Shown here piece after piece: positions 29,789 to 46,798 of a stretch of DNA of 64,000 nucleotides. The DNA lies in the NCBI RefSeq assembly GCF_947503465.1, contig NZ_CANNDN010000001.1, forward strand, positions 1,798,001-1,862,000, written 5' to 3'. A program made the translations under genes and the position numbers. Below the pieces are notes generated by a model, which worked only from the letters and a program-made list of their open reading frames with translations, searched no databases and was not told the origin of the DNA. Positions within the stretch are counted from its first letter, which is position 1. Each line of letters starts with the position of its first letter. This DNA comes from an uncultured Tateyamaria sp. (GTDB lineage Bacteria; Pseudomonadota; Alphaproteobacteria; Rhodobacterales; Rhodobacteraceae).

Positions 29789-30681
29789 TTCAAGACGGAC
29801 ACCGCCCGCAACCGGTCCTTGGCGAAATCGACAAAGGCGCGCACCTTCGCGGGTGCGCGACGCCCTTCCACATGCACCAGGTGGATGGGCAGCGGGTCGG
29901 GCTCGAACTCTTCCAGGACGGTCTGCAATGTCCCGTCCACCAGGTCCGGACCCACCTGATAGGACAGCACACGCACCAGCCCCCAACCTTGCCTGGCCAC
30001 TGCGATCGCGGCGGCCACGCTGCTCATGCTCAGCCGCGGGCGCACCCGGACCGCGTGTTGCTGGTCGCGACCAAACCGCCAATCCGTGACCGGACTGACC
30101 CGACCGGCCGAAACGATGCGATGACCCTTTAGGTCCGCCGGGACCTGCGGCGTGCCTGCCCGCGCAAGATAGCCAGGCGTGGCGCACACGATCCGGCGCA
30201 CCTGCCCAACGCGCACCGCAGACAGGCCCGACGACGGCAACGCGCCCAGCCGAACAGCCACATCAAACCCTTCTTCGACCATGTTCACGATGCGGTCGAC
30301 CATCACCACATCGGCCCGCACATCCGGATAGGTATCAAGGAATTCAGTCAACACCGGCGCCACGTAGATTCGCCCGAATTCATTGGAACAGGTGATACGC
30401 AACTGTCCCACCGGGGTGATCGCTGCACCGGCCGCCGCCTCGTCCGCGGCCTGCAATTGGGCCAGCACGTGGCGCGCGTCTTCAAGATAGGTCTGCCCGA
30501 CATCGGTCAGGCGCACACGCCGTGTGGTCCGCGTGAACAGGCGCGCGCCCAGCCGGTCCTCCAGCGCATTCACACCGCGCGTTGCAGACGGCGCGCTCAG
30601 CCCCACCGCGCGCGCACCGGCGGCAAAGCTCTCGGCCTCGGCGACGGCAACGAAGACCTGCAGGCTTTGCAACCTGTCCAT
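29785..30681 (-). CDS. LysR-family transcriptional regulator
   Basis: A 298-residue regulator, with [48 protein letters not shown] and a ligand-binding domain containing [16 protein letters not shown]. It is divergent from the DUF1348-GST-oxidoreductase operon (119-bp AT-rich gap) and probably controls it, as LysR proteins often do for divergent neighbours. Confidence 0.9.
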
Positions 30682-30800
30682 CGCACCTATTACCTCCAAT
30701 TTTCAAAATAATAACTTTTACATTCAGCATATTCATTCGTTTTGCAAGGCAATCTAAGTCTTCCCTACAAGGAAAATTCGGACCGCAAGAAGGCCAAGCC
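30682..30800. promoter_or_regulatory. AT-rich divergent promoter region with LysR-type dyads
   Basis: The 119-bp gap between the LysR gene and the DUF1348 gene is clearly more AT-rich than its surroundings. It contains ATTTT-C-AAAAT (30699-30709) and an ATTCAGCATATTCAT run; several T-N11-A matches can be drawn, so the actual LysR site is not certain. Confidence 0.4.
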
Positions 30801-31277
30801 ATGACTGATACCGACCAACGCCCGCCCCTGCCGCCCTTCACCGCCGACACCGCAGCAACCAAGGTGCGTCTGGCCGAAGATGGCTGGAACAGCCGCGATC
30901 CGACGCGGGTCGCGTTGGCTTACACACCCGACAGCCGATGGCGCAACCGTGCCGAATTCATCACGGGTCGGGCCGAGATCGCGGCCTTTCTGACCCGCAA
31001 GTGGGCCCGGGAACTCGACTACCGCCTGATCAAGGACATGTGGGCCTTTGACGGTGCCCGCATCGCCGTCCGTTATGCCTATGAATACCACGACGACAGC
31101 GGCACCTGGTACCGCGCCTATGGCAACGAAAACTGGGAATTCGATGCAGACGGTCTGATGGCCCACCGCCACGCCAGCATCAACGAACACCCCATTGCCG
31201 AGGCAGACCGCAAGTTCCACTGGCCCCTGGGCCGCCGCCCCGACGATCACCCCTCGCTCAGCGACTTCGGCTTTTGA
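30801..31277 (+). CDS. DUF1348 NTF2-like protein
   Basis: A 158-residue protein with the DUF1348 pattern: [60 protein letters not shown], and RRHASIN-type [10 protein letters not shown], closing [13 protein letters not shown]. The NTF2-like fold suggests a small enzyme or binding protein. It begins the operon opposite the LysR gene. Confidence 0.88.
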
Positions 31278-31298
31278 CCTCAAGAAAGGACCACGCCA

Positions 31299-31925
31299 AT
31301 GACTGCCCCCATCAAACTTTACCGCAACCCGAAATCCGGCCACTGCCACCGGGTCGAACTCATGATGTCGTTTCTGGACGTGCCCTATGAAACAGTTGAT
31401 CTGGACATGGCGAACGGCGCGCACAAGGCCCCGGACTACCTCAAGCTCAGCCCGCTGGGCCAGGTGCCTGCCATCGACGACAACGGCACCGTTCTGTCGG
31501 ATTCGAATGGCATCCTTGCCTACCTCGTCGGCACCTATGGCGATGACGCCAAGTGGACCGGCAAGACACCGGTTGAGAAGGCGCACATCCAGCGCTGGCT
31601 GTCCATCGCCGCGGGCGAGATCGCGTCCGGCCCGGCGGCCGCGCGGCTGGTCACGGTGTTTGGCGCAGGCCTCGACCATGCAGCGGCACAGGCCCGGGCA
31701 CACGCCCTGTTCAAGGTCATGGATACCGCGTTGCAGGATCGCACATACCTGGTCGGGGAGCGCCTCACCGTCGCCGACGTCGCGGCCTACAGCTACACGG
31801 CGCACGCACCCGAAGGCGGGGTCAGCCTGGCGCCCTACCCGCGCATCCGGACCTGGATCACCCGGATCGAAGGTCAGCCGAATTTTGTCGGCATGGCTCG
31901 GTCCCCTGTCCCCGACGCCGCCTGA
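31299..31925 (+). CDS. Glutathione S-transferase family protein
   Basis: A 208-residue GST. The N-terminal thioredoxin-like domain (IKLYRNPKSGHCHRVELMMSFL...LSPLGQVPAIDDNGTVLSDSNGILAYL) contains the cis-Pro VPAI and the glutathione-binding DSN; the C-terminal helical domain has YLVGERLTVADVAAYSYTAHAP. It lies second in the DUF1348 operon, 21 nt after it. Confidence 0.92.
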   Translation: MTAPIKLYRNPKSGHCHRVELMMSFLDVPYETVDLDMANGAHKAPDYLKLSPLGQVPAIDDNGTVLSDSNGILAYLVGTYGDDAKWTGKTPVEKAHIQRWLSIAAGEIASGPAAARLVTVFGAGLDHAAAQARAHALFKVMDTALQDRTYLVGERLTVADVAAYSYTAHAPEGGVSLAPYPRIRTWITRIEGQPNFVGMARSPVPDAA

Positions 31926-31953
31926 ACCGGCCCCCACGCAAAAGGACACCCCG

Positions 31954-33585
31954 ATGCCAGACGCAGCTTCCCCCTTTCACGCAGGCGAGATTAAGGCGCA
32001 GCGGCGCGCGGGAAAGCCTGATGTGCCCACATGGGCATCGGGGTTCATTCGGCCTTTCATGCCCGACCAGCACCGCGCCTTTTTCGAACAGCTTCCCTTT
32101 CTGGTGCTGGCCGGGGCGGATGCCGATGGATGGCCATGGGCGACCCTGCTGGACGGCCCCGACGGATTTGTGCAGTCCCCGGACCCCGGCACCCTGACAG
32201 TAAGCGCGGCACCCGACGATCAGGATCCCCTGGCGGATGCCTTCGCCGCGGGAACCGACATCGGCATGCTGGGCATCGAACTGGAAACGCGCCGTCGCAA
32301 TCGCATGAACGGTTATCTCCGCAGACGCGGCGCAGGCCTTGTCATCGAGGTCAGCCAGAGCTTTGGCAATTGCCCCCAATACATCCACGAACGCACCTGG
32401 CAGCGTGTCCCCGCGGGGACAACCATGCGGGCAACACGCACGAAAACGCTGAATGATGCGCAGATCGCGCGTATTCGGGCGGCAGATACGATGTTTGTCA
32501 GCACCGGACACCATGACGGGACCAGAAACGCATCGAATGGCCATGATGCGTCACACCGGGGTGGCGCACCCGGTTTTGTACAGGTCGTGGACGCCGCCCA
32601 TCTGCGTATTCCGGATTATGCAGGCAACAATTTCTTCAACACCATCGGCAACCTGATGGAAAATCCGCGCATCGGACTTGTCTTTGTCGACTTTGACACG
32701 GGTGGCCTCTTGCATCTGACAGGACGGGCATCCATCGACTGGACGCCCATCCGTGGCGACGACCCAAATGCCTTGCGCATGATCAATGTCGCGGTCGAAG
32801 CGGTGCTGGAACGGCCCGCTGCCCTGTCCCTGCGATGGCACACGGACAAAAGTGCCGATCTGGACCTGATCGTGACGGACAAGATCGCGGAAAGCGCTGA
32901 CATCACATCATTCCACCTGGCCGCGCCCGACGGCAGGCCGCTGCCTCGGTTCGAGCCGGGCCAGCACCTGCCCGTCCTGCTGGACATTCCCGGCCAGTCT
33001 GACGTGACACGCCGCAGTTATTCGCTGTCTGGTGCACCCGGTGCGGATCACTACCGCCTCAGCATCAAGCGCGAGGGGCTGGGCCTTGCATCCCGGCACC
33101 TGCACGACACCGTCCAGGTCGGCGACAGCGTACGTGCCCGTTCGCCATCGGGCAACTTTGTCATGCCCCGCAGCACTTGCCCCCTTGTCCTCGTCAGCGC
33201 TGGCGTGGGTCTGACGCCGATGGTGGCCGCGCTGCATGCGTTGGCCACAGACGGCTCTGACCGGCCGGTCTGGTTTGTACATGGCGCACGGAATCGCGCC
33301 CAACACGCCCTGGCATCAGAGGTGAACACATTGGTGCGCAATCGCCCCAACCTGACGCGGCGCATCCTGTACAGCCAGCCCGGTCCCACGGACATACGAG
33401 GCACTGATTTTGACGGCACAGGTCGCATCACGACCGACACGCTGATGGACCTGAATGCAGGAAGCGATGCGCATTACATGCTTTGCGGGCCTGCGCCCTT
33501 TCTGTCGGATCTGCGCACAGGGTTGGAGGCCGCGGGCGTACCCGACGCACATATCCATTTCGAGACCTTCGGGCCCACGGGCTGA
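31954..33585 (+). CDS. PNPOx-like flavin protein fused to ferredoxin-NAD(P)H reductase domains
   Basis: A 543-residue two-part protein. Residues about 40-310 are a pyridoxamine-phosphate-oxidase-like FMN barrel (GADADGWPWATLLDGPDGF, NFFNTIGNLMENPRIGLVFVDF). Residues about 320-543 are an FAD/NAD(P)-binding reductase: RRSYSLSGAP, LVSAGVGLTPMVAALHAL, HYMLCGPAPFLSDL. Related fusions generally end with a 2Fe-2S ferredoxin domain; this one stops right after FETFG and the convergent gene begins 15 nt later. The start is ATG 31954, 28 nt past the GST gene. Its substrate is unknown. Confidence 0.87.
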   Translation: MPDAASPFHAGEIKAQRRAGKPDVPTWASGFIRPFMPDQHRAFFEQLPFLVLAGADADGWPWATLLDGPDGFVQSPDPGTLTVSAAPDDQDPLADAFAAGTDIGMLGIELETRRRNRMNGYLRRRGAGLVIEVSQSFGNCPQYIHERTWQRVPAGTTMRATRTKTLNDAQIARIRAADTMFVSTGHHDGTRNASNGHDASHRGGAPGFVQVVDAAHLRIPDYAGNNFFNTIGNLMENPRIGLVFVDFDTGGLLHLTGRASIDWTPIRGDDPNALRMINVAVEAVLERPAALSLRWHTDKSADLDLIVTDKIAESADITSFHLAAPDGRPLPRFEPGQHLPVLLDIPGQSDVTRRSYSLSGAPGADHYRLSIKREGLGLASRHLHDTVQVGDSVRARSPSGNFVMPRSTCPLVLVSAGVGLTPMVAALHALATDGSDRPVWFVHGARNRAQHALASEVNTLVRNRPNLTRRILYSQPGPTDIRGTDFDGTGRITTDTLMDLNAGSDAHYMLCGPAPFLSDLRTGLEAAGVPDAHIHFETFGPTG

Positions 33586-33600
33586 CCCGCGCGCACAGGG

Positions 33601-35493
33601 TCAGGGCGGGTTGGATGCGCTGAGATAGGCGTGCAGTTCCGTCAGCACTTCTGCCCCTGCAAGCGGCATCTCGGGGAACAGGCTGCGCAAGTTACGGGCG
33701 CCCCGCATCTCGGCCAACGTGAGCGCGGGCTTGTTTGCACGGCCCCGACCGCTCCAGTCCAGGCCAAGGACATGGTGCAGGACAAAGGCCAGCGGGTCAG
33801 GCGCTTGCACCGCCGCCAGTTGGGCGGGCGTGATATCGCCAAATGCGCGTTCGTACAGGGCGACAAGCGCGCCGCCTGTTGCAGGGGCGGCAACTGCGCC
33901 GCCTTCCAGTCCGAATTGCGCGCCGGAATGGGGCGTGGGAGGCGGCGGGCGTGCCTTTTGCAGGGCGGTGGCAATTTTGGGAAACGGATGGGTCACGCGG
34001 GCCCCGATGACATGCGCACGCGGGCCCGGCGTGTCGGCATCGCCCGGCGGCCCCGCAGTCAAGACAAGGCTGGGCGCGCCCGACTTCTGATCAGTTTGTA
34101 CCTGTGTTTTGACAGACTGGTGGGCCGAGCTTTTCAGGTGCACCTCGCCCATCAGGCTGGCGCTTGTCTTGCTGCCCGTTGGCACGCTTTTGGACAGGCG
34201 GCCCAGATCGCCCTTGGGGTACACAACCTGCAAGGTCACGGCCCGGCAGACCAGCAGCTTTTGCACGGTGCCGACATTGGCGCCAAGCCCGTGGCCGCCG
34301 CCCACCGGGATCTGGAAATGGTAGCCACGCGGCACGTTCAATGCCTGATTGGTCGCGGCCTGCACAATGGGATGTTCAAAATACCAGCCGGTTGTCGTGT
34401 CGGGGTCCGCCTGGGCAAACGGGGTCGCGGCAACGGTGATCTCAGCGGGGCCATGATAGATGATCTTGACCTCTGCCCTGTCGCCTGAACCGTCATGGGC
34501 AAAGAGGTCGCGCGCCGCACCCTTGTTCGGGGCCACCGACACCACCCCGGCCGGGACGGATGCCGCTGGCTTGCCTGCCATGTTCACAACCGTCTGTCCT
34601 TTCGCGGTGCGCTTGGCGGAAAAGGTCACCTCGATCGTTGCCGATGATGACAATTGACTGCGGATGTCTTCGACCGGGGGCGAGACGGCAAAGCTGTGCC
34701 GCACGACGGTGTTGCCGGTGCGGTCCACCGTGTACATGCCGCTGTGATTTGCGACATCCGGGGCTTGGGTGTTGGCCGCCGCGTCCCGGATGGACCGCGA
34801 CAGGTTCCACAGCCTGTCGATCTGGCGTGCCCAGTCCTGTTCATGGCCCAGCGCCGCCTTGAGCGTGGGCAAAAAGGTCTGCTGTGCATTGGTCGGCGCG
34901 TGCGCAAACAAGGACGCCAGCGGGCCTGACCGAATTTCCGAGGCGGTGAGTGGCGGCAGACCGGCGGCTTCGCGCCCGCTCCAGCGGAAGGCGATCTGGT
35001 AGTCAACCACGTAAGTCAGGTTGCTGACGGTCGACGCGCCCAGCGCTGTGGCCGCGGTTTGCTTGTCTGCCGGGCTAATCGGGGCGAACATCGACTGGTA
35101 GGTGTTGATCAGTTGCCCCTGCGCCATGCGGGCGGCAATCAGGTGCTTGTTCACATCGGCCTGATCCTTGTCCGTCCAAAGATACGCGGTGGCGCTGATG
35201 ATGTTGAAGTACCAGGTGGTGAACCCGGCGGTCAGCCGAATGGCCCCACGACTGGTTTTCGATGCAATGGTGTTCAGGAAATTCCACGTCTCGGCGTTGA
35301 ACGTCCCGAGGTTGTTCCACTCCCACGGAAAATCCCCGACCCCCGAGGTGTCGAGCGGCACGTAATCCACCGGATCAACCTGTGTGGTCTGGCCGGATGG
35401 CCCACTGACAGGTGCCAGTTTGCGCGCGGCCTGGGCCGACAGGCGCAAGGACGACACAAGGTCCCGCCTGAAAGCGCCATAGGGGTCTTGCAT
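33601..35493 (-). CDS. Unknown protein, paralogue of the gene at 35593
   Basis: A 630-residue protein of a family I do not recognise. The N-terminal part aligns with the 479-residue neighbour: a PWEWNNLGTFNAETWNFLNT block here against FWYWNNAAIFNTDTWNQFNN there, and later TTGWYFEHPIVQAATN against GTGWWNPSLIKAAAN. Unlike the neighbour it has an extra Pro/Ala-rich linker (KARPPPPTPHSGAQFG) and a C-terminal part of about 100 residues (ALVALYERAFGDITPAQL...LGLDWSGRGRANKPALTL). There is no signal peptide, membrane helix or catalytic motif. The start at 35493 has GAGGTGG upstream. Same strand as its paralogue, 99 nt apart. Confidence 0.75.
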   Translation of the reverse strand: MQDPYGAFRRDLVSSLRLSAQAARKLAPVSGPSGQTTQVDPVDYVPLDTSGVGDFPWEWNNLGTFNAETWNFLNTIASKTSRGAIRLTAGFTTWYFNIISATAYLWTDKDQADVNKHLIAARMAQGQLINTYQSMFAPISPADKQTAATALGASTVSNLTYVVDYQIAFRWSGREAAGLPPLTASEIRSGPLASLFAHAPTNAQQTFLPTLKAALGHEQDWARQIDRLWNLSRSIRDAAANTQAPDVANHSGMYTVDRTGNTVVRHSFAVSPPVEDIRSQLSSSATIEVTFSAKRTAKGQTVVNMAGKPAASVPAGVVSVAPNKGAARDLFAHDGSGDRAEVKIIYHGPAEITVAATPFAQADPDTTTGWYFEHPIVQAATNQALNVPRGYHFQIPVGGGHGLGANVGTVQKLLVCRAVTLQVVYPKGDLGRLSKSVPTGSKTSASLMGEVHLKSSAHQSVKTQVQTDQKSGAPSLVLTAGPPGDADTPGPRAHVIGARVTHPFPKIATALQKARPPPPTPHSGAQFGLEGGAVAAPATGGALVALYERAFGDITPAQLAAVQAPDPLAFVLHHVLGLDWSGRGRANKPALTLAEMRGARNLRSLFPEMPLAGAEVLTELHAYLSASNPP

Positions 35494-35592
35494 GTGCCCA
35501 CCTCGCGTTTTCGTCCCGTGTGCCACCCCAGCATAGCAAAACCCACCCGGCAATCACCTCAGGATCGCCGGGTGGGCCAGGTACTGGTTACC

Positions 35593-37032
35593 TTACTTGG
35601 CGCCGGGCCATGCGCAATCGGCACCGATCACATAGGCCTGGGATGTCATGATGTTGCCCGGAATGACAGCAGGCGGAGGTGTCATGGTCACCGTAACGGT
35701 GCCTGCGGTCTTGTCGTACTTGTAGACCGAGCTTTCGTAGCTTTGCGATCCACCACCCAGCGGGATGCCAAGGAAGCTGACGCTCCAGTGCGATTCCTGC
35801 GAGAAGTGGGACTGGAACGACTGTTCATCCGCGTTGTGGAACACCATGGTGATCGTCGGCAGGTCACAGATCGCCAGTACGTCCAGCACCCCAAAGTCAC
35901 CGTTTTCGGCAAAGTTGTAGTTCTGGGGTGTGGTGAAGCCCACGCCGCTGACATTCGGATCGTGGTTGGCCGCCGCCTTGATCAGCGAAGGGTTCCACCA
36001 GCCGGTGCCTGTACCGATGTCATAGGCGCTGGCCGACAGTTGCGGGGTGAACTTGGTCACGCCCTTGAAGGACAGGCTGATGTCCACCTGCGTGACGTTG
36101 CTGTCGAACGAGAACGCGTTGTAGCTGGCGCTGGCACCGGCCCCGATGTGGAACCAGTCGATCCAGCCGGACACGCCCGCGCCACCTTCGACCGACACTT
36201 TGGACGTCGATTGGTCCACCTTGGTCACGGACATCGCGATGTCGAAGCCCTGGCTGCCGTTCAGGCCGTTCTGGATGGTGCTGGTCGCCTCTGCAATATC
36301 GAGATACGGCAGGATCGACGTCGCGCCCGTCACGTCAGCGGCGGACATCCAGCCCTTTTTCACTTGTGCCGGTGTCGGGCTCAGGTTCTTGGCGCTTTGC
36401 TTGATCTGACCGTTGTAGCTGTTGACCGCGTTCTGAACCGATGCGGCGGCATCCGTTTGCGACAGGTAGGTCATGAAATCGCTGATAAGCTTGGCCGATC
36501 CAAGCGGCGCGTTGGGCAACAGCGATGTCGGGTTGGTCGAGGTGCGGAACGTGGCTAGCGTCAGGCCCTGATCACCCCAGGACATGATCTGCTCTGTCAC
36601 GTAAAGCAGCTTGGCCCCGGCGGTTCCGCTATTGGCCGCGGGGATGGCGCCAAACATCGATGTGTAGTCGCCCACAACTGTGTTCAGAATGCCCGCAGCA
36701 TTGGTGTTGGCCTTGTTCAGGGCCGCCTGATCTGCCGCGGTCAGTTCGTACGCCATGGCAAGGTACAGGTTGAACAACGCGGTATTCAGCGCAGTGCCGT
36801 CGGTTGTCTGCAAATAGCCGTCCGGATTGTACTGCATCACGTTGTTGAACTGGTTCCACGTATCCGTGTTGAAGATGGCCGCGTTGTTCCAGTACCAGAA
36901 CAGATCGCCCATGCCGGCGCTGTCGACAGGCGACCAGTTTTGGATGTTCAGTGCCTTTTGAACCGGGCCGTCCGCCTTCTTGGCAAGGCTGTCATAATAG
37001 GCCTTTTTGATTTGTGCGATGTCTTGGGTCAT
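35593..37032 (-). CDS. Unknown protein, first of a paralogous pair
   Basis: A 479-residue protein, unrecognised family. It starts with a helical region (IAQIKKAYYDSLAKKADGPV), carries the shared WYWNNAAIFNTDTWNQFNN block at about residues 46-64, and an Ala-rich middle. From about residue 240 it becomes beta-rich, with Gly-rich stretches (GGAGVSGWIDWFHIGAGASASYNAF) and WSVSFLGIPLGGGSQSYESS, ending in a C-terminal TSQAYVIGADCAWPG. The layout, helical then beta and hydrophobic-glycine rich, is compatible with a pore-forming or lectin-like protein, but that is only a guess. No signal peptide. It is first in its transcript, facing the divergent control region. Confidence 0.75.
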   Translation of the reverse strand: MTQDIAQIKKAYYDSLAKKADGPVQKALNIQNWSPVDSAGMGDLFWYWNNAAIFNTDTWNQFNNVMQYNPDGYLQTTDGTALNTALFNLYLAMAYELTAADQAALNKANTNAAGILNTVVGDYTSMFGAIPAANSGTAGAKLLYVTEQIMSWGDQGLTLATFRTSTNPTSLLPNAPLGSAKLISDFMTYLSQTDAAASVQNAVNSYNGQIKQSAKNLSPTPAQVKKGWMSAADVTGATSILPYLDIAEATSTIQNGLNGSQGFDIAMSVTKVDQSTSKVSVEGGAGVSGWIDWFHIGAGASASYNAFSFDSNVTQVDISLSFKGVTKFTPQLSASAYDIGTGTGWWNPSLIKAAANHDPNVSGVGFTTPQNYNFAENGDFGVLDVLAICDLPTITMVFHNADEQSFQSHFSQESHWSVSFLGIPLGGGSQSYESSVYKYDKTAGTVTVTMTPPPAVIPGNIMTSQAYVIGADCAWPGAK

Positions 37033-37151
37033 TTTGATGTCCTCTAAGCTCTGTCAAAAATGATGCTCGTGTCCGAGCGGTTCCCCCCAGGAAAATTCCT
37101 TTGGGTGGCAGAAGCGCCAAGGACAGGCTGGCAGGACAGGCGGATCGAAGT

Positions 37152-37225
37152 CCTGAAACATTCCCGAAATAGTTGTGATTTCTGGCTCACGCGACATTTC
37201 GGAAATATTTCGGAAAAGTTTCAGG
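37152..37225. promoter_or_regulatory. Divergent control region with three copies of a TTTCGGAAA-like palindrome
   Basis: Copies are CATTCCCGAAAT (37159-37170), CATTTCGGAAAT (37195-37206) and TATTTCGGAAAA (37206-37217); the last two are 11 bp apart, one helical turn. The whole group is enclosed by an outer inverted repeat CCTGAAAC (37152-37159) and GTTTCAGG (37218-37225). It lies in the 286-bp gap between the two unknown transcripts. Confidence 0.65.
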
Positions 37226-37318
37226 CCTTTGGCCGTGCACCTTTTGCAGACTGTATCTCGTGCGGCCCAAGTGCGGGCCCGCATGCAAGACACGTGAAAG
37301 GCTCGGAACGACGTGACC

Positions 37319-37969
37319 ATGATAACTGCGCGAAACGAGACGATCCGAGAGATCCGAGTGTTTCCATACTACCGGGGTGTACCGCTTGAAGTGGATGCGG
37401 TGGGCAAGGCCAGCTCAGGCAAATACGAGGCCGGTTTCTTTGCCGGTCAAACCTACTACACGCTCGAACTTGATGACTGGAACGAATTCCGGGAGGTGCA
37501 TGTCGGAGCAACCTATACCTGCACGGCGATTTCGAAGGACGGGCGCCCCCTGAAAACCCACTGGATGTTCTGTACGTCCGTGGCAGGCCGGCCCACGTTT
37601 TCCATCAGCCGCCACTGGACCAACCCGACCAACTTCGCCCCTGTTCTGCCGCTGTGCGATACCAGCCTCGTTCATCTTGAGGAATTGACGGACATGGTTG
37701 CGTCCCTGCCCCGTGCCGTCGGTGACGACAGCCTTGTCCAGGCACAGATCGGTACATCCGGATGGCTGGTCATGACGCGGATCGGATGCCCGCACATGAT
37801 CGGCATCATGATTGACGACGCGGTGCTGCCCAGCCATATGTGCCAGGGTGCCAGCGATCTTGTCATCACTGCCCGCTCGGTGCGCACGACCCAATCCATC
37901 ACGCTGGAAAAACTAAGCTGCGTCAGCACCAAAGACAAATCCCTGTTCTTACGGCTGCACGAGGGATGA
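37319..37969 (+). CDS. Unknown 216-residue protein
   Basis: No family recognised. The chain is beta-rich (YYTLELDDWNEFREVHVGATYTCTAI; TFSISRHWTNPTNFAPVLPL) and has six scattered cysteines, no signal peptide and no membrane helix. A GTG six bases upstream (37313) is an alternative start. It is the first plus-strand gene facing the paralogue pair, and precedes the winged-helix/TPR regulator. Confidence 0.6.
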   Translation: MITARNETIREIRVFPYYRGVPLEVDAVGKASSGKYEAGFFAGQTYYTLELDDWNEFREVHVGATYTCTAISKDGRPLKTHWMFCTSVAGRPTFSISRHWTNPTNFAPVLPLCDTSLVHLEELTDMVASLPRAVGDDSLVQAQIGTSGWLVMTRIGCPHMIGIMIDDAVLPSHMCQGASDLVITARSVRTTQSITLEKLSCVSTKDKSLFLRLHEG

Positions 37970-38172
37970 TTGTGCTATGCCGAACCTCTGTTGATCACTA
38001 CTATAGGTCGCGTAACCAGTCGTGGCCGTTGCCTCGGACGCGCGTATCGGGCGATCTTGCGCCAATGCGCGGGGTTTTGTGCGCGCATGCGGTAGGCAAG
38101 CGCACACAGGACCATACGGTGGGTGTGGGTGCGGCTGGCGACACCAGGGGGAAGGCGCCGACGGCACTGAAA

Positions 38173-39798
38173 ATGAACGGTTTTGCGGCTGCGCATATTC
38201 GATTGGGCGACGCGCTTTATGACGTGGCCACGGATCGCATTGTCACGTCATGTGGCGAAGATATCCTGTTGCGGTCCCAGTCCGCACTGGTTTTGAAGTA
38301 TCTCGTGGGGGCCCTTGGCACACTCGCAACACGAGAAGAGTTGATCGCCGAGGTCTGGCCTGACGTTTCGGTCACGGATGACAGCCTGACGCAATGTATC
38401 CTCGACATTCGGCGCGCCATTGGCGACGCGGATCGCGTCATTCTCAAGACCGTGCCCAAGCGTGGATTTGTTTTGACCGGGACCCCCGTGCCGGAGGTCA
38501 TTGAACCGGAAACGGCACGATCCGCACCGCTGCCAGCGTCACCGCTGCACCCTGACAATACGCCTGCGCAGACAGGCATCATCGTGCCCGAGCTTGACCC
38601 GCGCGACGTGCTGCCGACCCTGGCGGTGTTGCCTTTCCGAACACAGCCCGACAACGGCCATGGCACACTGATCAGCGCGTTTGTCGGAGACGAGATCGCA
38701 GCCGCCATCAGCAGGTCCGAAGACATGAACGTCATTTCGCGCCTGTCGACGCTTAACCTGTCTGGCGGCCCCAATTCGTTGCAGAACGTGGGGTCGATGC
38801 TGAACGCGGATTTCATCATCTCCGGCAGCGTGTTCGAACGCGACAACAAGGTGCTGCTGCTGATCGAATTCGCGGAAACGGACCGCCAGACTGTGCTGTG
38901 GTCGGACCGGATGGCCCTTGATTCGGTTGAATGGATGCATGACACGGACACGATCGACCGGATTGTGACCCACATCCGCCGCGCCATCATGATCAACGAA
39001 GTCCGGCGCACCCGGTCAACACCTTTGACGGACCTCAAGCTGTTCAGTGTCCTGCACGGTGCGGTTGGCCTGATGCACCGGTTTTCGCCCGGCGATTTCA
39101 ACCGGGCGCAGAACTACCTTGAATATGTGACCGAAAAAGCCCCCGAGCATCCCACACCGCTGGCGTGGCTGGCGCGCTGGCATGTGTTGCGCACCGTGCA
39201 GGGATGGGCAGAAGATCCCCGCCACGAAGCGCGCGCCGCGCTGGATTTTACCGCCCGCGCGCTGGATATCGAACCCGATCACACCATGGCCCTGGTGTGC
39301 GAAGGGCAGGTGCTGGCGCATCTGCAACATCGTCTGGACGAGGCGCAAGCCCGCTATGACGCTGCACTGGCGCTGAACCCCAATGATGCGCAGGGGCTGG
39401 CCTTGCGGGGCATGTTCTCTGCCTTTCGTGACATGGGCGCCGAAGGCAAGCGCGACACGGAACGCGCCCTGCACCTGTCACCGTTCCATCCCCATCGCTT
39501 TTTCTTTCTGGCCCAAGCAGCGGCGGCAAACATCGCCGCCAAGGACTTTGGCCGGGCCGTAACACTTGCCAAGGAATCCCGGCGTCTCAACAGAACACAT
39601 GTGTCCACGTTGCGAACACTTGCGATTGCACAGGTTGGCGCGGGTCAATTGGAAGATGCCCGCGACACCGGCAAGGAACTGTTGCGCCTGCATCCGAACA
39701 TGCGTGTCAGCAGTTGGCTCAGGAACTCGCCCAGTTCCGGCTACGAACTGGGGCGTTCGGCCGCCGAAAAACTGCGCAGCATCGGGATTCCGGATTAG
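38173..39798 (+). CDS. Winged-helix/TPR transcriptional regulator (CadC-type DNA-binding domain)
   Basis: A 541-residue protein. Residues 1-97 are an OmpR/PhoB-type winged helix (LLRSQSALVLKYLVGALGTLATREELIAEVWPDVSVTDDSLTQCILDIRRAIGD...VPKRGFVL). A central TolB-like segment (LPTLAVLPFRTQP) is followed by several TPR-like repeats from about residue 280 (ARAALDFTARALDIEPDHTMAL, AQARYDAALALNPNDAQGLAL). No membrane helix lies between, so it is cytoplasmic, unlike CadC. It probably controls the neighbouring genes. An ATG at 38065 would lengthen it by 36 residues. Confidence 0.82.
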   Translation: MNGFAAAHIRLGDALYDVATDRIVTSCGEDILLRSQSALVLKYLVGALGTLATREELIAEVWPDVSVTDDSLTQCILDIRRAIGDADRVILKTVPKRGFVLTGTPVPEVIEPETARSAPLPASPLHPDNTPAQTGIIVPELDPRDVLPTLAVLPFRTQPDNGHGTLISAFVGDEIAAAISRSEDMNVISRLSTLNLSGGPNSLQNVGSMLNADFIISGSVFERDNKVLLLIEFAETDRQTVLWSDRMALDSVEWMHDTDTIDRIVTHIRRAIMINEVRRTRSTPLTDLKLFSVLHGAVGLMHRFSPGDFNRAQNYLEYVTEKAPEHPTPLAWLARWHVLRTVQGWAEDPRHEARAALDFTARALDIEPDHTMALVCEGQVLAHLQHRLDEAQARYDAALALNPNDAQGLALRGMFSAFRDMGAEGKRDTERALHLSPFHPHRFFFLAQAAAANIAAKDFGRAVTLAKESRRLNRTHVSTLRTLAIAQVGAGQLEDARDTGKELLRLHPNMRVSSWLRNSPSSGYELGRSAAEKLRSIGIPD

Positions 39799-39830
39799 TG
39801 CCGGGACATTCATTAAAGGGAGTATGAAGA

Positions 39831-41006
39831 ATGAGCATTGGACCAGAGAACGCATTGAATGCCTTGAATGCGCTGAATGCACTCAACGCGTTAAACGCCT
39901 TGAACGCACTGGGCAGCAACAACGCGCTGGCCGCAGGCGGAAACGAGGGCCCTTTGCTGGGCGAGGCGCTGATCACCAACCGCGACGGCATTGTCGGCAC
40001 GCAGATCGACCACATCACACCGCCGGCGGCTGGTGTCGTGGACAGCCCGGAAAACCTGCCCCGCCTGGCCAAAAGCGTGCGCGCCGCCATTTTCCAGGCC
40101 GAACTGGCGCCAAGCGTGGACCTGACCGTCGATACCGACGGCACGCTGCCGGTGACGACCTTGTGGCGCCGCACATCCGAACGGGATGGCCGTCGACGCA
40201 AGGTCACCTACAGCGAAATGGTGGAAATGACCGCACCCACGGTCGAGCAACTGTCCACGCAGCTTAGTCTCGTATCCGGGTATGCGCGCATTCGCCCGGA
40301 TCGTGCGGCCGAAATCCTGTCTCAGATCGGCGTTCCCACCGCCTTCTTCGGGTCCGTGAATTTCCTGAATGCCGAGCGGACGCCGCACACGATCGAATTG
40401 CTGTACACGGCGCTGACATTCGCGTTGCCCGTTATCCAGCGCACCAAATACGCGCTGGCCGTCAAGCGGCCCATTGAATTCTCGCCGCAGGTCCAGCCCA
40501 TGATTCCAACGCCAACGCATGGAACACTGCCCAGCGGCCACGCGACCGAGGCGTTCCTGATGGCCCGCATCCTGTGGAAGCTGCTGATCGAAAGCGACGC
40601 GCCGCAATACAACGACAAGGCCTATTGGGGCAGCATGCTGATGCGGCAGGCCGCGCGCATCGCCACCAACCGCACCGTTGCCGGCGTGCATTTTCCGATC
40701 GACAGTGTGGCGGGCGCGACATTGGGCCTGACCCTGGCCGATCATGTCCACGCGATGTGCCATGGCGGTGGCTGGACGTCCGCCACGCTCGACACGCCCA
40801 ATTTCGACCCCGAGCAGGATTTCGACTGGCACCAGATCTACAGCGCTGAAGGCAACGCGATGGCGGACGAGGCTGTGTCGGATCGCGGTGTGTGGCTGCG
40901 CACCCACCATCACAGCGCCCCCGATTGCGAAGGCCCCGCGCCCGCCCTGACCTGGCTGTGGAACAAAGCGCTGGACGAGTGGCGCGACCTGGGCGGCGGG
41001 GCATAG
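39831..41006 (+). CDS. Vanadium haloperoxidase/PAP2-type protein with N-terminal Asn-Ala-Leu repeat
   Basis: A 391-residue protein. Residues 7-27 are seven tandem NAL triplets with varied codons. The catalytic part follows the haloperoxidase/PAP2 pattern: K-x6-RP (KYALAVKRP), LPSGHATEAF (His about 236), and RTVAGVHFPID (Arg 281, His 287, Asp 291). Such proteins bind vanadate or phosphate; haloperoxidases oxidise halide with hydrogen peroxide, relatives are acid phosphatases. The sequence cannot decide between them. No signal peptide is seen, although many relatives are exported. It is nine nt before the protease gene. Confidence 0.82.
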   Translation: MSIGPENALNALNALNALNALNALNALGSNNALAAGGNEGPLLGEALITNRDGIVGTQIDHITPPAAGVVDSPENLPRLAKSVRAAIFQAELAPSVDLTVDTDGTLPVTTLWRRTSERDGRRRKVTYSEMVEMTAPTVEQLSTQLSLVSGYARIRPDRAAEILSQIGVPTAFFGSVNFLNAERTPHTIELLYTALTFALPVIQRTKYALAVKRPIEFSPQVQPMIPTPTHGTLPSGHATEAFLMARILWKLLIESDAPQYNDKAYWGSMLMRQAARIATNRTVAGVHFPIDSVAGATLGLTLADHVHAMCHGGGWTSATLDTPNFDPEQDFDWHQIYSAEGNAMADEAVSDRGVWLRTHHHSAPDCEGPAPALTWLWNKALDEWRDLGGGA

Positions 41007-41015
41007 GGGCGGACC

Positions 41016-43109
41016 ATGGCACGCTGGATCCCCAACCCCGAACCGGACGCCGCGGACATCATCGATCACATCACCTATTTCCGGCTGTCGCGCGAAGGTC
41101 ACCACTTTGCCGATGACCGGGAGGACGTGTGGTGGTCGGTCCTGGTCGAGCTGGAAGGCATCAGCATCGACCAGTTCGAACTGCTGTTGCAGGCGTTCGC
41201 GGATGACCTGCTGATCCCCGCGGCCTATGATGCAACCGACCGCAGCGCGGTACGCCCGCTGCAGCCCGTGGCCATTTATGCCCGCACCCGGCTGGCCGAT
41301 CACCTCAATGACCGGGCCAGTGACCTGAACATTGCCTCGGTACTGCTGGGCGCGTCGGTGCCTGCGCGGTTTCTTGACCGGGGTGCCCGCGCCCGCGACC
41401 TGCCAGAGGTGATCGTCGACGATGATGCCGTGATCCAGGCCGTCGTCGATGACGGTATCGGAATTGCGCACGAGCTGTTCCGCAGCGGCGCAACAGCGAC
41501 CCGCATCCACCATGCACGCATCTTCGAAGCCGAACCGCTGCCCGGCGGCGGCACCAGCATCGGGCGCGACCTGACCAAGGACAAGATCGATACGCTTTTG
41601 GCCGATTGCACGTTTGACGGCGTGCTGGACGAGGATCTGTTCTATCAGAAATCCGGGCAACTCGACTTTGCCAGGGGTGTATTTTCCACCGTGGCCCTGC
41701 GCCGGTCGCATGGCACGCACGTGATGGCGCTGGCGGCGGGTCGCACCATGGCCGAAGACGCCCAGACCCATCCGATCATCTGCGCGGCCCTGCCATCGCG
41801 GATCGTGGCGGACACAACCGGACTGGACAGCGTGCCGGTGCTTTACCTTGCCTTCCATATCCTGGTGAAACAGGCGCGCCGGTTTCGCACCCGGACGGGC
41901 GCACCGGTGCCCGTGGTGTTCAACTTTTCCTATGGCAATACCGGCGGGCCGCATGATGGCACCGGCATCTTCGCATCCATGTTCAACCATTACTTTGGGC
42001 AAGAGGGCGTTCGGGACAGCGCGTTGCTGCATGAAACCGACGAAAACACGCTCCAGCGTGCGGCGTCCCTGACCGACGGTGGATCACAAAAGGCGTGGCT
42101 GATACTGCCTGCGGGCAATGCCAACCTCGAACGGCTGCACGCCATCGACGACGGCGAAACCGACCATGACGGGGCGACAACGCTTGATCTGACGGTACAG
42201 CCGGATGACCGGACGCCGACCCACACGCAGATCTGGCTGCCGGTCAGCGCACAGGACGCGCAACCGAATTTTGCCACCATCACCGTGCAGGCCCCGTTCG
42301 ACATGGACGTCGGTGTCATCGAAACCCGGCCCGGCGAACATGCGGCACTGGTCAACAAACAGGGACAGCGAATTGCATGGTTGGCCTATCAATATGTGGG
42401 CGGGCACACCCAGCGCGGGCTGGTGACACTGTCCAGCAACCCAACCGCCAACCTGTCGGAGACATCTGACCTGGCCCCCGCAGGGACATGGAAGATCACG
42501 ATCAAACGGCATGCCGAGGCACCAAGGGACCCGATCCACGTCTGGGTGCGGCGGGATGAAACCCTGCCCGGGCAGATCACCGGCGGGCGGCAGGCCTTTC
42601 TGTCGAACCCCGACTACAAGCGCTTTGATCGGTTCGGGGCGCCCTTGGCCGTTGATCCGCCCCACAGCAAAAGCCCGGTGCGCCGCGCCGGGACCCTCAG
42701 CGGGTTTGCCTGCGGCGCATCACCGGTGGTCGTCGCCGCCTATACCGAACAGGAGGCGATCGTTTCAGATTACTCTGCCGCCGGACCGCTCAACCCATCG
42801 CCGAACGGCCCGGTGCCAGCCCGGGACGGGCCGGACCTGACGGCCAAGGGTGACGACAGCCTTGTGCGCCGTGGCGTGATCTCGGCCGGGTCGCGCAGCG
42901 GGTCCTGGGTGCGTCAGGCAGGCACCAGCGTTGCGTCGCCACAGGTGGCCCGCCTGGCGGGCCAGGCGATCCATGACCAGTCGGGCACAGCACGCGATTG
43001 GACGGCGCAGGCCGTCCGGGACCACCCGTTTGCGTTGCATGGGCATCCATCCCCCACGCGCGTGGGACATGGTGCCATTCGCCTGCCAAGGGACGACGTC
43101 ATCGGCTAG
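41016..43109 (+). CDS. Subtilisin-like (S8) serine protease
   Basis: A 697-residue protease. Catalytic residues are Asp145/146 (VVDDGIGIAHE), His232 (RRSHGTHVMALAAGRTM) and Ser638 (AGTSVASPQVARLAGQAI); the oxyanion Asn probably lies in PAGNANLERL. Between His and Ser is an insertion of about 400 residues, in place of the usual 150 or so, with a possible beta-sandwich. There is no signal peptide or obvious propeptide; about 140 residues precede the first catalytic Asp. ATG 41016 has GGGGCGG upstream. It is the last gene of the regulator-haloperoxidase-protease run. Confidence 0.85.
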   Translation: MARWIPNPEPDAADIIDHITYFRLSREGHHFADDREDVWWSVLVELEGISIDQFELLLQAFADDLLIPAAYDATDRSAVRPLQPVAIYARTRLADHLNDRASDLNIASVLLGASVPARFLDRGARARDLPEVIVDDDAVIQAVVDDGIGIAHELFRSGATATRIHHARIFEAEPLPGGGTSIGRDLTKDKIDTLLADCTFDGVLDEDLFYQKSGQLDFARGVFSTVALRRSHGTHVMALAAGRTMAEDAQTHPIICAALPSRIVADTTGLDSVPVLYLAFHILVKQARRFRTRTGAPVPVVFNFSYGNTGGPHDGTGIFASMFNHYFGQEGVRDSALLHETDENTLQRAASLTDGGSQKAWLILPAGNANLERLHAIDDGETDHDGATTLDLTVQPDDRTPTHTQIWLPVSAQDAQPNFATITVQAPFDMDVGVIETRPGEHAALVNKQGQRIAWLAYQYVGGHTQRGLVTLSSNPTANLSETSDLAPAGTWKITIKRHAEAPRDPIHVWVRRDETLPGQITGGRQAFLSNPDYKRFDRFGAPLAVDPPHSKSPVRRAGTLSGFACGASPVVVAAYTEQEAIVSDYSAAGPLNPSPNGPVPARDGPDLTAKGDDSLVRRGVISAGSRSGSWVRQAGTSVASPQVARLAGQAIHDQSGTARDWTAQAVRDHPFALHGHPSPTRVGHGAIRLPRDDVIG

Positions 43110-43170
43110 TTCCGGAGGGGGGCGGCGCGAAATCGGTTGCTGCCACCCCCGTCTCAACTATTGTCAGCCC

Positions 43171-43794
43171 ATGCAGCTGCCCGGCGACATCGACACAAAG
43201 ACCCTGATCGCCTGCCCGAAATGCGATGCGCTGTATCGGGTTGGCACGGTGCGCAAGGGCGATCAGGCCCGTTGCACCCGGTGTCACACGCGCTTGTTCA
43301 CCCGGCGGCGCGATGCGGGACTGATCATCATCAGCTCTGCGCTGGCGTCCACCATCCTGGTGATCGCGGCCCTTTTTCTGCCGTTCATCGAAATCCGGCG
43401 GCTGGGGTTCAGCAACGCCGCCACCATCGTGGATGCGGCTCTGGCCTTTTACGGCGGTCCGCTGTTTGCCCTGTCGCTTGCGGTTGTTGCCCTGATCATC
43501 GCGCTGCCACTCGCCCGGCTCGTTCTGACGCTGTACACGCTGACCCCGCTGGTCCTTGATCGCCCCCCATGGCCCGGGGCCAGACACCTGTTCCGCCTGA
43601 GCGAGGCCATGCGCCCCTGGTCCATGGCCGAAATCTTTCTGGTCGGCTGTGCGGTGTCCCTGATCAAGCTGACGGACCTGGCGCGGGTCGAATTGGGCCC
43701 CGCGTTCTGGATGTTTGTCGCGGTGGTGGTGCTGATGGCGGTGCAGAACATGGTGATGTGCCGCTGGTCGGTGTGGAAGGCACTGGAACGATGA
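43171..43794 (+). CDS. pqiA: Paraquat-inducible protein A
   Basis: A 207-residue inner-membrane protein. Starts with a CxxC zinc finger (IACPKCDALY...ARCTRCHTRL) and continues with about four helices. PqiA partners the MCE protein PqiB in lipid movement between membranes. It is followed by a second pqiA with ATGA overlap; E. coli has one fused protein with two such domains. The ATG at 43171 begins the family domain. Confidence 0.9.
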   Translation: MQLPGDIDTKTLIACPKCDALYRVGTVRKGDQARCTRCHTRLFTRRRDAGLIIISSALASTILVIAALFLPFIEIRRLGFSNAATIVDAALAFYGGPLFALSLAVVALIIALPLARLVLTLYTLTPLVLDRPPWPGARHLFRLSEAMRPWSMAEIFLVGCAVSLIKLTDLARVELGPAFWMFVAVVVLMAVQNMVMCRWSVWKALER

Positions 43795-44414
43795 CCGTAA
43801 CCGCGCGGGACAAGGGGCTGGTGTGCTGCCGGGAATGCGCGCGGGTCTGGCCCTCGGGCCAGTCCCATTGCGGCACCTGCGGCAACACGCTGCGATCCCG
43901 CGATGACCAAAGCCTGCACAAGGTCTGGGCCTGGTGGGCGGCCGGTGTGATCGCCTACATCCCCGCCAACATCTATCCCATGCTGAAAACCCGCACCCTG
44001 CTGCACACCTCCGAAGACACGATCATCGCTGGCGCGCTTGAGATTGCGGCACATGGGTCATTTGGCGTGGCCCTGATCATCCTTCTGGCATCGGTCGTGA
44101 TCCCGCTGGGCAAGTTCTTTGCCATCGCGTATCTCGCGCTTGCGGTGCGGCGCCGGGCGCGCTGGCCCGCGCGGCGCCAATACATCCTCTACGAGGTTGT
44201 CGAATATATCGGGCGCTGGTCCATGATTGACGTGTTTGTGGTGGCGATCCTGTGTTCGTTGGTGCAATTGAACGTCGCGGCGTCGATCACGCCGGGTGTG
44301 GCGGCGCTGACTTTTGCGTTGTCGGTTATTTTTACGATGCTGTCGGCCCAAAGCTTTGATCCCCGTCTGATCTGGGACCGCATCGACACGCAACAGAAGG
44401 CAAGTCCGGTTTGA
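43791..44414 (+). CDS. pqiA: Paraquat-inducible protein A, second copy
   Basis: A 207-residue partner, again beginning with a double CxxC motif (LVCCRECARVW...CGTCGNTLRSR) and four helices including IPANIYPMLKTRT and GRWSMIDVFVVAIL, a PqiA signature. It overlaps the first copy by 4 nt and pqiB by 4 nt. Confidence 0.92.
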   Translation: MTVTARDKGLVCCRECARVWPSGQSHCGTCGNTLRSRDDQSLHKVWAWWAAGVIAYIPANIYPMLKTRTLLHTSEDTIIAGALEIAAHGSFGVALIILLASVVIPLGKFFAIAYLALAVRRRARWPARRQYILYEVVEYIGRWSMIDVFVVAILCSLVQLNVAASITPGVAALTFALSVIFTMLSAQSFDPRLIWDRIDTQQKASPV

Positions 44415-46798
44415 GTTCCGATATCCCCGACATTCAATCCGAACAGCACACCCCGCGCCGCCCTTGGGGTGGGGCGCAATGGGTATGGCTGGTGCCTGTG
44501 GCGGCCCTGCTCACGGCCGTTTGGGTGGGCCTTCAATCCTACAATGATCAAGGTCCCTTGGTGCAGATCGTCTTTGACGACGCGGCCGGTATCCTGCCGG
44601 ACGAAACCGAAGTCCGGTTTCGCAATGTGCCCGTGGGCCTGGTCGAGGATATCGGCTTTAACCAGGACCTGTCGCAGGTGCTGGTCGAGGTGCGGCTGGA
44701 CAAGACCGTGGCCCCCTTTGTCGATGATGGCGCCGCCTTCTGGATCGTCCGGCCCGAGGTGACCACCAGCGGCGTGACCGGCCTGGAGACCGTGCTGTCG
44801 GGCGTCTACATCGAAGGGACGTGGGACACGGATCCGGGCGGCCTTGTCACGGAACACATGGCGAGCGACCGGGCGCCGCTTGTCACCACGTACCGCGCCG
44901 GGACGCTGATCGAACTGCGGTCGACCCGGGCGGCGGGCCTGTCGGAAAACACCCCCATCCTGTTCAAGGGGATCGAGGTGGGACGGCTGGGTGCCACGAC
45001 AATCTCGGTCAACGGCCAGTGGGTCACGGCCCAGGCGATCATCTATGAACCCCATGACCAGCTGGTCACAACGGCGACCCGGTTCTGGGACACCTCCGGC
45101 TTCAGCCTGTCGGTCGGTGCCTCGGGCGCGTCGCTTGACTTCTCCTCTGTCGCCTCGCTCATTTCCGGCGGGATCACCTTTGGCACGCTGGTATCGGGCG
45201 GGCAGCCCGTGCGCGAAGGGCTTGTCTACGAAGTACACCCGGACGAGGCGGCCGCGCGCAACTCCGTCTTCGAAGGCAGCAGCGGCCAGGCCCTGCGGCT
45301 GACCATGATGTTTGACGACAATGTCAGCGGGCTGACGGCAGATGCCGACGTAGAGTGGCGCGGCGTGCGCATCGGGCGGGTCGCGAACGTGTCCGGCATC
45401 GTGGATCCCGACCGTTTCGGGGACGCCCGGGTGCGCCTGTTGTCCACGGTCGAAATCAACACATCGCGCTTTGGCCTCGACGCCGATCTCGACCGGGCGC
45501 AGGCGCTGGATTTCCTGGACGCCCGCGTGGCCGAGGGGCTGCGGGCCCGTCTTGTGACCGCATCGATCCTTGCCGGGGGCCTCAAGATCGAATTGCTGAC
45601 CGACCCGGATGCCGTGGCGGCGACGATCGACCGCACAGGCGATCCGTTCCCGATCTTTCCTGTCACCGAAGGCGAAGTGGCGGATGTGTCCGTCACTGCC
45701 GAAGGCGTGTTCGAACGCGTCAACGCCCTGCCCATCGAAGAATTGCTCGACAGTGCCATCCGCTTTCTGGACAACGCGACGCTGCTGGTCGCCAGCGAAG
45801 AGGTGCGCGAAACGCCCGCCGAAATCCTCGGCCTTCTGTCGGATGCGCGGGGCGTGATCAGTTCGGACGAGGTGCAGGCGCTGCCTGAAGACCTGCGCGC
45901 GATCATGGCCGACGTGCAGGCCGCGAGCGGCGATCTGCGCGGGCTGTTGGCGGACATACGCGACGCGCAGACCGTCGACCGGCTGTTGGCGGCTGTGGAT
46001 CAGGTGGGGGCCGCTGCGGCAGAGGCGGACGCAGCACTCGCCGGGCTGCCGGACCTGACCTCGCGCATCGCGGACTTCGTGGACCGGGCCAATGCCCTGC
46101 CCCTGGACGTTCTTGTCGATCGGGCCAGCAGCTTCGCGCGCGAGGCGGAAACGCTGCTCGCCTCGGACCAGATGCGCGCCATGCCCGCCTCTGTCACGCA
46201 GGCCTTTGACGAATTGACAACGGTCCTGACCAACCTGACCGAGGCCGACACCGCCGATCTGCTCAGCACCGCACTTGTGGACACCAGCGAGGCGGCCACC
46301 GCCGTCGAAGATGCCGTGTCGGGCCTGCCGTCCGTTGTGGAACGGCTGGACCGGATCGCCGCCCAGGCAGAGAACGTCGAGCTCGACACGCTCGCCCGTG
46401 AACTCGAAGCAGTGCTTGCCTCGGCCCGGCAGCTTCTTGGCGACACCAGCGACGCGCAATTGCCCACCGCACTCGCCAGCGCCTTGAACGAGGCAGAGGC
46501 CGCGCTGGCAGAACTGCGGGCGGGTGGCGTCATCGAGAACACGAACGCCACGCTGTCTTCGGCCCGCCAGGCGGCGGCGGCCATCGAAAGCGCGGCAGGC
46601 GAATTGCCCGCACTTGCCGACCGCCTCAACAGCACGCTGTCCCAGGCGCAAGGCACGTTGCGCGACTACGGCGAAGGTTCGGCCTTTTCCCGCGAAACCC
46701 TGACGGCCCTGCGCGAGATCGAACGGGCAGCAAAGGCACTGACCGACCTTGCCCGCACCATCGAACGCAATCCCAATTCCCTTCTGCTAGGACGATAG
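44411..46798 (+). CDS. pqiB: MCE-domain lipid transport protein PqiB
   Basis: A 795-residue protein, begun by TTG overlapping the previous stop. One N-terminal membrane helix (WVWLVPVAALLTAVWVGL) is followed by three MCE domains: GPLVQIVFDDAAGILPDETEVRFRNVPVGLV, RAGTLIELRSTRAAGLSENTPILFKG, and LTMMFDDNVSGLTADADVEWRGVRIGRV. From about residue 430 to the end it is almost entirely helical, with repeating 40-60-residue units (ALPIEELLDSAIRFLDNA; ANALPLDVLVDRASSFAREAETLL). E. coli PqiB is 546 residues, so this has about 250 extra. It likely forms a periplasmic tube or needle between membranes. Confidence 0.92.
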   Translation: MSSDIPDIQSEQHTPRRPWGGAQWVWLVPVAALLTAVWVGLQSYNDQGPLVQIVFDDAAGILPDETEVRFRNVPVGLVEDIGFNQDLSQVLVEVRLDKTVAPFVDDGAAFWIVRPEVTTSGVTGLETVLSGVYIEGTWDTDPGGLVTEHMASDRAPLVTTYRAGTLIELRSTRAAGLSENTPILFKGIEVGRLGATTISVNGQWVTAQAIIYEPHDQLVTTATRFWDTSGFSLSVGASGASLDFSSVASLISGGITFGTLVSGGQPVREGLVYEVHPDEAAARNSVFEGSSGQALRLTMMFDDNVSGLTADADVEWRGVRIGRVANVSGIVDPDRFGDARVRLLSTVEINTSRFGLDADLDRAQALDFLDARVAEGLRARLVTASILAGGLKIELLTDPDAVAATIDRTGDPFPIFPVTEGEVADVSVTAEGVFERVNALPIEELLDSAIRFLDNATLLVASEEVRETPAEILGLLSDARGVISSDEVQALPEDLRAIMADVQAASGDLRGLLADIRDAQTVDRLLAAVDQVGAAAAEADAALAGLPDLTSRIADFVDRANALPLDVLVDRASSFAREAETLLASDQMRAMPASVTQAFDELTTVLTNLTEADTADLLSTALVDTSEAATAVEDAVSGLPSVVERLDRIAAQAENVELDTLARELEAVLASARQLLGDTSDAQLPTALASALNEAEAALAELRAGGVIENTNATLSSARQAAAAIESAAGELPALADRLNSTLSQAQGTLRDYGEGSAFSRETLTALREIERAAKALTDLARTIERNPNSLLLGR

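What the first reader, a model, noticed from the sequence alone, without database searches (positions are those of the whole stretch)
33601..37032. Two paralogous proteins of unrecognised family, one with an added C-terminal part
The N-terminal W-x-W-N-N...F-N-x-x-T-W-N block is shared, and further matches (TGWY/TGWW, then a hydrophobic beta region ending in ...C[RD]..T) follow in the same order, so the genes arose by duplication. The longer one adds a Pro-rich linker and about 100 residues. Helical N-half plus beta/glycine-rich C-half would fit a soluble pore-former or a self-assembling protein, but nothing shows this.
Basis: partly seen in the sequence, partly recalled or inferred. Interest (0 to 1): 0.62.

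Follow-up and report, generated by a model that had tools for sequence, protein, structure and literature searches.

The report
Paired proteins under a shared operator
Two related proteins of a family with no name sit together in a marine bacterium, share a DNA control element with a neighbouring protease gene cluster, and may be the two parts of a membrane-acting assembly, though that last step is not shown.

Summary
A (35593-37032, 479 aa) and B (33601-35493, 630 aa from its conserved ATG, not the TTG at 35553) are paralogues over their whole shared length. B's extra C-terminal part is not new: it repeats the helical segment of A and B. No Pfam, NCBIfam, PADLOC or PDB sequence relative was found. 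The pair occurs in 4 of 20 genomes of the genus (Tateyamaria), in another genus of the family, and in a Colwellia MAG. A conserved terminator-like hairpin with compensatory changes separates A from B, so A is probably made in excess. A/B lie divergently beside a conserved set: small protein, wHTH/TPR regulator, PAP2-fold protein with a three-residue repeat, S8 subtilase. A triple 11-bp direct repeat stands between them. It occurs once in this genome, and in the genus in exactly the 12 of 20 genomes with a strong match to the set's PAP2 gene. Other genomes hold other genes there, several also tandem pairs; a profile comparison ties one such family to A/B's beta half. Best reading: A (major) and B (minor) form a two-component assembly, perhaps a pore, co-regulated with a cytoplasmic subtilase. 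Co-regulation is well supported; pore formation rests on weak fold matches and context.

The parts
35593..37032 (-). gene A, 479 aa, short paralogue, strongly conserved (78-90% in five other genomes)
33601..35493 (-). gene B, 630 aa, long paralogue, less conserved (41-58%)
33871..33975 (-). Pro-rich, length-variable linker of B (about residues 507-541)
   Evidence: alignment
33610..33867 (-). C-terminal repeat of the helical segment in B (residues 543-628)
35542..35576 (-). terminator-like hairpin between A and B, 14 pairs, then T-rich; kept in 6 of 6 pairs compared
37197..37223 (-). triple 11-bp direct repeat (YGAAA-N6-YGAAA-N6-YGAAA), the only exact match in this genome
37154..37180 (+). opposite-facing degenerate copy of the repeat (13 of 15)
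37319..37969 (+). small conserved protein, no family (ORF listed from GTG 37313)
37840..39798 (+). regulator: winged helix (Trans_reg_C) and TPR; start uncertain
39831..41006 (+). PAP2-fold protein with (NAL)7 near its N-terminus
41016..43109 (+). S8 subtilase, Asp/His/Ser motifs present, no hydrophobic N-terminus

Best explanation
A and B are the two unequal components of one heteromeric, beta-rich assembly, most likely acting on a membrane. Shown: paralogy over the whole shared length; a helical segment repeated at B's C-terminus; a conserved covarying terminator-like hairpin between the genes; an operator-like triple repeat between A and the divergent regulator/PAP2/S8 set, which tracks that set through the genus. 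Inferred: the winged-helix regulator binds the repeat and switches A/B on together with the set; the hairpin ends part of the transcripts, so A is the abundant subunit and B the scarce one; the neighbouring S8 protease, which has no evident signal peptide, processes the assembly, the linker of B being the obvious target; once processed the assembly inserts through its glycine/serine-rich beta segments.
For: Paralogy and the repeat in B. Hairpin kept in 6 of 6 pairs, 95.2% of cells paired against at most 48.8% when slid, 5 of 14 pairs with changes on both sides. Exact triple repeat: 19 sites in 12 of 20 genus genomes, against 1 for the reversed control pattern; these 12 are exactly the 12 with a strong (E below 1e-100) PAP2 match, Fisher p=8e-6. 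In loci with the winged-helix regulator the repeat (at least 14 of 15) is found in 14 of 22; with the other regulator type in 0 of 7. Three of the five sites away from the set lie upstream of tandem genes; one gene of each tandem was scanned and both hit MakCD, the G013 one above the cut-off (119.3 bits, cut-off 110), the G004 one below it (102.1); MakCD are accessory proteins of a tripartite pore-forming toxin (PMC11484084, passages). Profile match of A/B to another family found at the same place: score 48.3 against at most 18.8 for 59 shuffles and 18.0 reversed. Tandem paralogous pairs recur. B's top five structural rows are bacterial gasdermins.
Against: No pore activity is shown. Gasdermin match: Foldseek E=0.02, best Z 5.9, while models without a clear match typically reach 7-8 by the tool's note; A does not list gasdermins in its top 50. 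The beta-amphipathicity scan is hardly above shuffled expectation (A 28 of 469 windows, 23 expected; B 43 of 620, 31 expected; one related payload 10 of 578, 28 expected). Two of nine carriers (Colwellia MAG L012, G917 L083) have no set within the stretch read, and the Colwellia genome gave no PAP2 match, so the set is not indispensable. Neither A nor B has an evident signal peptide. In 8 of 22 winged-helix loci no repeat of at least 14 of 15 lies in the stretch first read; for two of these (G003, G005) it lies upstream of the adjoining genes. The profile tie to the other payload family was weak with the first, smaller alignment (probability 11.6%).
Confidence: 0.42

Rival explanations
1. A and B form a non-lytic self-assembling body (inclusion, filament or matrix); the PAP2 protein and subtilase mature or dissolve it.
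For: Extreme conservation of A (84-90% within the genus while its neighbours are at 56-75%), excess of A implied by the hairpin, no signal peptide.
Against: A structural body would not obviously need a neighbouring subtilase; other families under the same operator are MakCD-like or differ altogether.
Confidence: 0.27
2. A and B are true gasdermin or MACPF/CDC relatives too divergent for sequence search.
For: Top Foldseek and VIA rows of B are bacterial gasdermins; subtilase in the neighbourhood, as in fungal HET-Q1/HET-Q2 (PMC10989679, passages); long/short pair as in CDCLs (PMC11952106, sections).
Against: Z 5.9 is within noise; no N-terminal Cys, no MACPF signature (motif recalled); no sequence or profile hit.
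Confidence: 0.15
3. A and B are surface or released binding proteins (lectin-like or adhesive) whose link to the set is only shared regulation.
For: Glycine/serine-rich beta half with invariant G-W; members of the associated family on plasmids without the set in the stretch read.
Against: No signal peptide; no lectin family or fold hit.
Confidence: 0.13

Closest known systems
CDC-like proteins (CDCL long/short pairs)
   Same: Adjacent long and short paralogues; proteolytic activation is part of the known system, and a protease gene lies near A/B; one scarce and one abundant component is implied here by the hairpin (PMC11952106, abstract and sections 4, 10, 11).
   Different: No sequence relation found; the extra part of B repeats its own helical segment instead of adding a membrane-binding domain; protease is S8, not C11; no signal peptide.
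Bacterial and fungal gasdermins with adjacent protease (for example HET-Q1/HET-Q2)
   Same: Weak fold resemblance of B; S8 protease in the neighbourhood (PMC10989679, passages).
   Different: Twice the length, large helical N half, no N-terminal Cys; the protease is in a divergent operon with a regulator and a PAP2 protein.
Mak operon of Vibrio cholerae (MakCD with MakABE)
   Same: MakCD-like genes carry the same operator in two genomes of the genus.
   Different: A/B are not Mak proteins by the family and PDB sequence searches made here.

Membership tests
Gasdermin (bacterial) | gasdermin fold of the pore-forming domain | tested here: inconclusive
   Foldseek E=0.02, VIA Z 5.9 for B on a model of mean pLDDT 67.6; not in A's top 50
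Gasdermin (bacterial) | N-terminal Cys for palmitoylation | tested here: not met
   no Cys in the first 10 residues of A or B; feature from PMC10989679, passages
Gasdermin (bacterial) | dedicated adjacent activating protease | tested here: inconclusive
   S8 subtilase with Asp/His/Ser motifs about 4 kb away in the divergent operon; activation not testable
MACPF/CDC/CDCL | MACPF signature or profile match | tested here: not met
   no signature (recalled motif); no Pfam match
CDCL-type bicomponent system | adjacent long and short paralogues | tested here: met
Pore-forming proteins in general | membrane permeabilisation | not testable with these tools
   needs liposome or cell assays
Any Pfam/NCBIfam/PADLOC family | match at the curated cut-off | tested here: not met
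   PHROGs up to E 1 gave only weak hits

The most novel reading that the evidence does not exclude
A/B belong to a new superfamily of tandem-pair membrane-perforating proteins that serve as interchangeable payload of an undescribed cassette: a winged-helix/TPR regulator reads a triple-repeat operator and turns on both a payload and a cytoplasmic subtilase plus a PAP2-fold protein with a three-residue repeat tail, so that the protease licenses whichever payload the genome carries; a bacterial counterpart in logic, not in descent, of the HET-Q2/gasdermin pair.
Probability: 0.2. Interest if true: 0.85.

Novelty: new variant of a known kind. Interest (0 to 1): 0.6.

Why it matters
It turns two orphan ORFs into parts of a regulated module with a defined operator, a protease and swappable neighbours, so function can be approached through the regulon. 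If the payload proves to be membrane-acting, it is a further case of protease-gated two-component assemblies in bacteria.

Tried and rejected
Phage or plasmid cargo: 0 relatives in viral contigs and no plasmid match for A or B. Gasdermin membership: kept only as a rival (see evidence). Vip3, PilZ and phage tail folds: weak rows, within noise. Viral fold library: best E 0.0027 with probability 0.13, no use. Rfam: nothing in 30000-45000. Beta-hairpin prediction from amphipathicity: not far enough above chance to use. A payload of G018 (334 aa) is not detectably similar to its neighbour of 462 aa (score 40, shuffled mean 38.5), though it is to a G917 protein (77 vs 37.9). L086-type payload: profile scores against A/B (26.3, decoy maximum 22.2) and against the other family (30.5, decoy maximum 16.0) are too weak to claim. 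I took the tandem genes of G013/G004 for PixA/AidA from memory; Pfam did not support it and NCBIfam gave MakCD. Literature: searches for the cassette or for Tateyamaria pore-formers found nothing; only open-licence papers are held. Absence of MACPF or other pore-former folds from the VIA lists is not evidence.

Full report
What is there. On the minus strand lie A (35593-37032, 479 aa) and, 99 bases downstream, B (33601-35493, 630 aa). BLASTP aligns them over 473 columns at 24% identity, E=2e-27. Local alignments against 500 shuffles give 0 of 500 for the whole, the W-rich block, the helical segment, the beta half and everything outside the W block. B's start at ATG 35493 matches its relatives. 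B's last 86 or so residues repeat the helical segment (0 of 500 shuffles; two controls at chance) after a Pro-rich linker of variable length.

No known family. Pfam, NCBIfam, PADLOC and PDB sequence searches with single proteins or alignments gave nothing convincing; PHROGs gave weak hits only. AlphaFold2 models from 11 sequences are poor to middling. Foldseek ranks two bacterial gasdermins first for B (E 0.02 and 0.086) and VIA puts five gasdermin entries on top (Z 5.9 to 5.2), but the tool itself notes that Z under 8 may mean only a common arrangement, and A's lists do not show them.

Who has it. In 20 genomes of the genus (named Tateyamaria in the titles of L010 and L011), 4 have the A/B pair and a fifth, G018, one distant relative. 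Of 394 family genomes 4 match, the window's own among them: G1101 with the pair, G1041 with one relative, G917 with two tandem ones. Of 385 class and 398 phylum genomes only the window's own matches. A is far more conserved than anything around it: 84-90% in three genus genomes where B is at 50-58% and the four neighbours at 56-75%.

Between A and B. All six pairs compared keep a 14-pair hairpin, followed by T-rich sequence in most; 95.2% of cells pair, 5 of 14 pairs show changes on both sides, and sliding the partners drops pairing to at most 48.8%. I read it as a partial terminator that makes A exceed B; this is inference. The pattern scan did not list it.

Beside A. Divergent from A run a small protein, a regulator with a winged helix and TPRs, a PAP2-fold protein and an S8 subtilase. 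The PAP2 protein has the three motifs looked for and the subtilase its catalytic motifs (patterns recalled); neither has a hydrophobic N-terminus. Regulator, PAP2 and S8 were found together in all seven further genera whose S8 neighbourhood I fetched, out of 28 other genomes with an S8 match in a sample of 248, and on plasmids of Phaeobacter, Rhizobium, Roseibium, Caballeronia and others, there partly with a cyclase-type regulator. In 26 of 30 loci scanned the PAP2 protein carries at least four identical three-residue units near its N-terminus (NAL, GAY, NAY, SAY, NSF, AGI, GGY and others); of the other four, L064 has no perfect array and three gave no frame passing the filter.

Operator. A triple direct repeat with 11-bp period, YGAAA-N6-YGAAA-N6-YGAAA, lies at 37197-37223 (minus), with a degenerate opposite copy at 37154-37180. 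None appeared in five simulated windows. In 20 genus genomes there are 19 exact sites in 12 genomes against 1 for the reversed pattern; the window's genome has one. The 12 are the same 12 that have a strong (E below 1e-100) PAP2 match (Fisher p 8e-6); two further genomes have only weak PAP2 matches and no site. By position, 14 of the 19 sites lie at the set or the genes joined to it; 3 of the other 5 lie upstream of tandem MakCD-like genes, one beside a small gene of unknown family, one near a gene that I read as a glycosyltransferase. Across 22 loci with the winged-helix regulator 14 hold a copy of at least 14 of 15; in 7 loci with the other type none does. The pattern was derived from some of these same loci, so the genus-wide count and the reversed control are the fairer test.

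Other genes at the same place. G970 has five genes there, two of them of a family also found in tandem on plasmids of Neorhizobium and Rhizobium and singly in Acuticoccus. A profile of 17 A/B-type proteins matches a profile of 7 of that family in the C half, P=4.8e-5, score 48.3 against 18.0 reversed and at most 18.8 in 59 shuffles. With the earlier 11-row profile the match was weak (probability 11.6%; 2.5% when rerun in the script). G011 has another tandem pair, G003 and G005 a set of at least four genes with the operator in front. So the place next to the set is variable; several occupants are tandem paralogues (5 of 6 further pairs tested beat all 500 shuffles, the G018 pair does not).

Mechanism and rank. 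Co-regulation of A/B with the set and a two-component product with unequal amounts are the best-supported parts. Membrane action is the most likely use to my mind because of the protease, the MakCD link and the gasdermin-like rows, but each of these is indirect. A self-assembling non-lytic body is the main rival. Known systems it would resemble in logic are CDCL pairs (PMC11952106: abstract, introduction, comparison section and discussion read) and HET-Q1/HET-Q2 (PMC10989679: passages). Membership in either is not claimed.

Noticed in passing
window 39831-41006 and PAP2 genes of related loci: PAP2-fold proteins with long perfect three-residue repeats near the N-terminus whose letters differ from genome to genome (NAL, GAY, NAY, SAY, GGY, AGI, TAM) while the period is kept.
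   Followed up: partly
L091 (own genome, C1:1649000-1664000): A second, diverged regulator/PAP2 (TAM repeats)/S8 set in the same genome, without the operator and without A/B.
   Followed up: partly
L012 8001-11410: A/B pair with its hairpin in a low-GC Colwellia MAG, without the set: likely transfer between classes.
   Followed up: partly
L112 6618-7844, L113 6677-7895: MakCD-like tandem genes with the same operator, without MakABE recognised nearby.
   Followed up: partly
L064 5173-8582 (-): Three paralogous proteins of 340-394 aa with acidic or Gln/Ala-rich tails, one with a hydrophobic stretch, at the payload place.
   Followed up: no
L111 6372-6725 (-), with ORFs antisense to a likely relative in L061 and L089: Small conserved protein beside the operator in G013, apparently also in G832 and G004.
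   Followed up: no
L065 12886-14331 (-), L060, L072: Tandem paralogues of 224 and 235 aa behind the S8 gene in Phaeobacter and relatives, another pair of unknown family.
   Followed up: no
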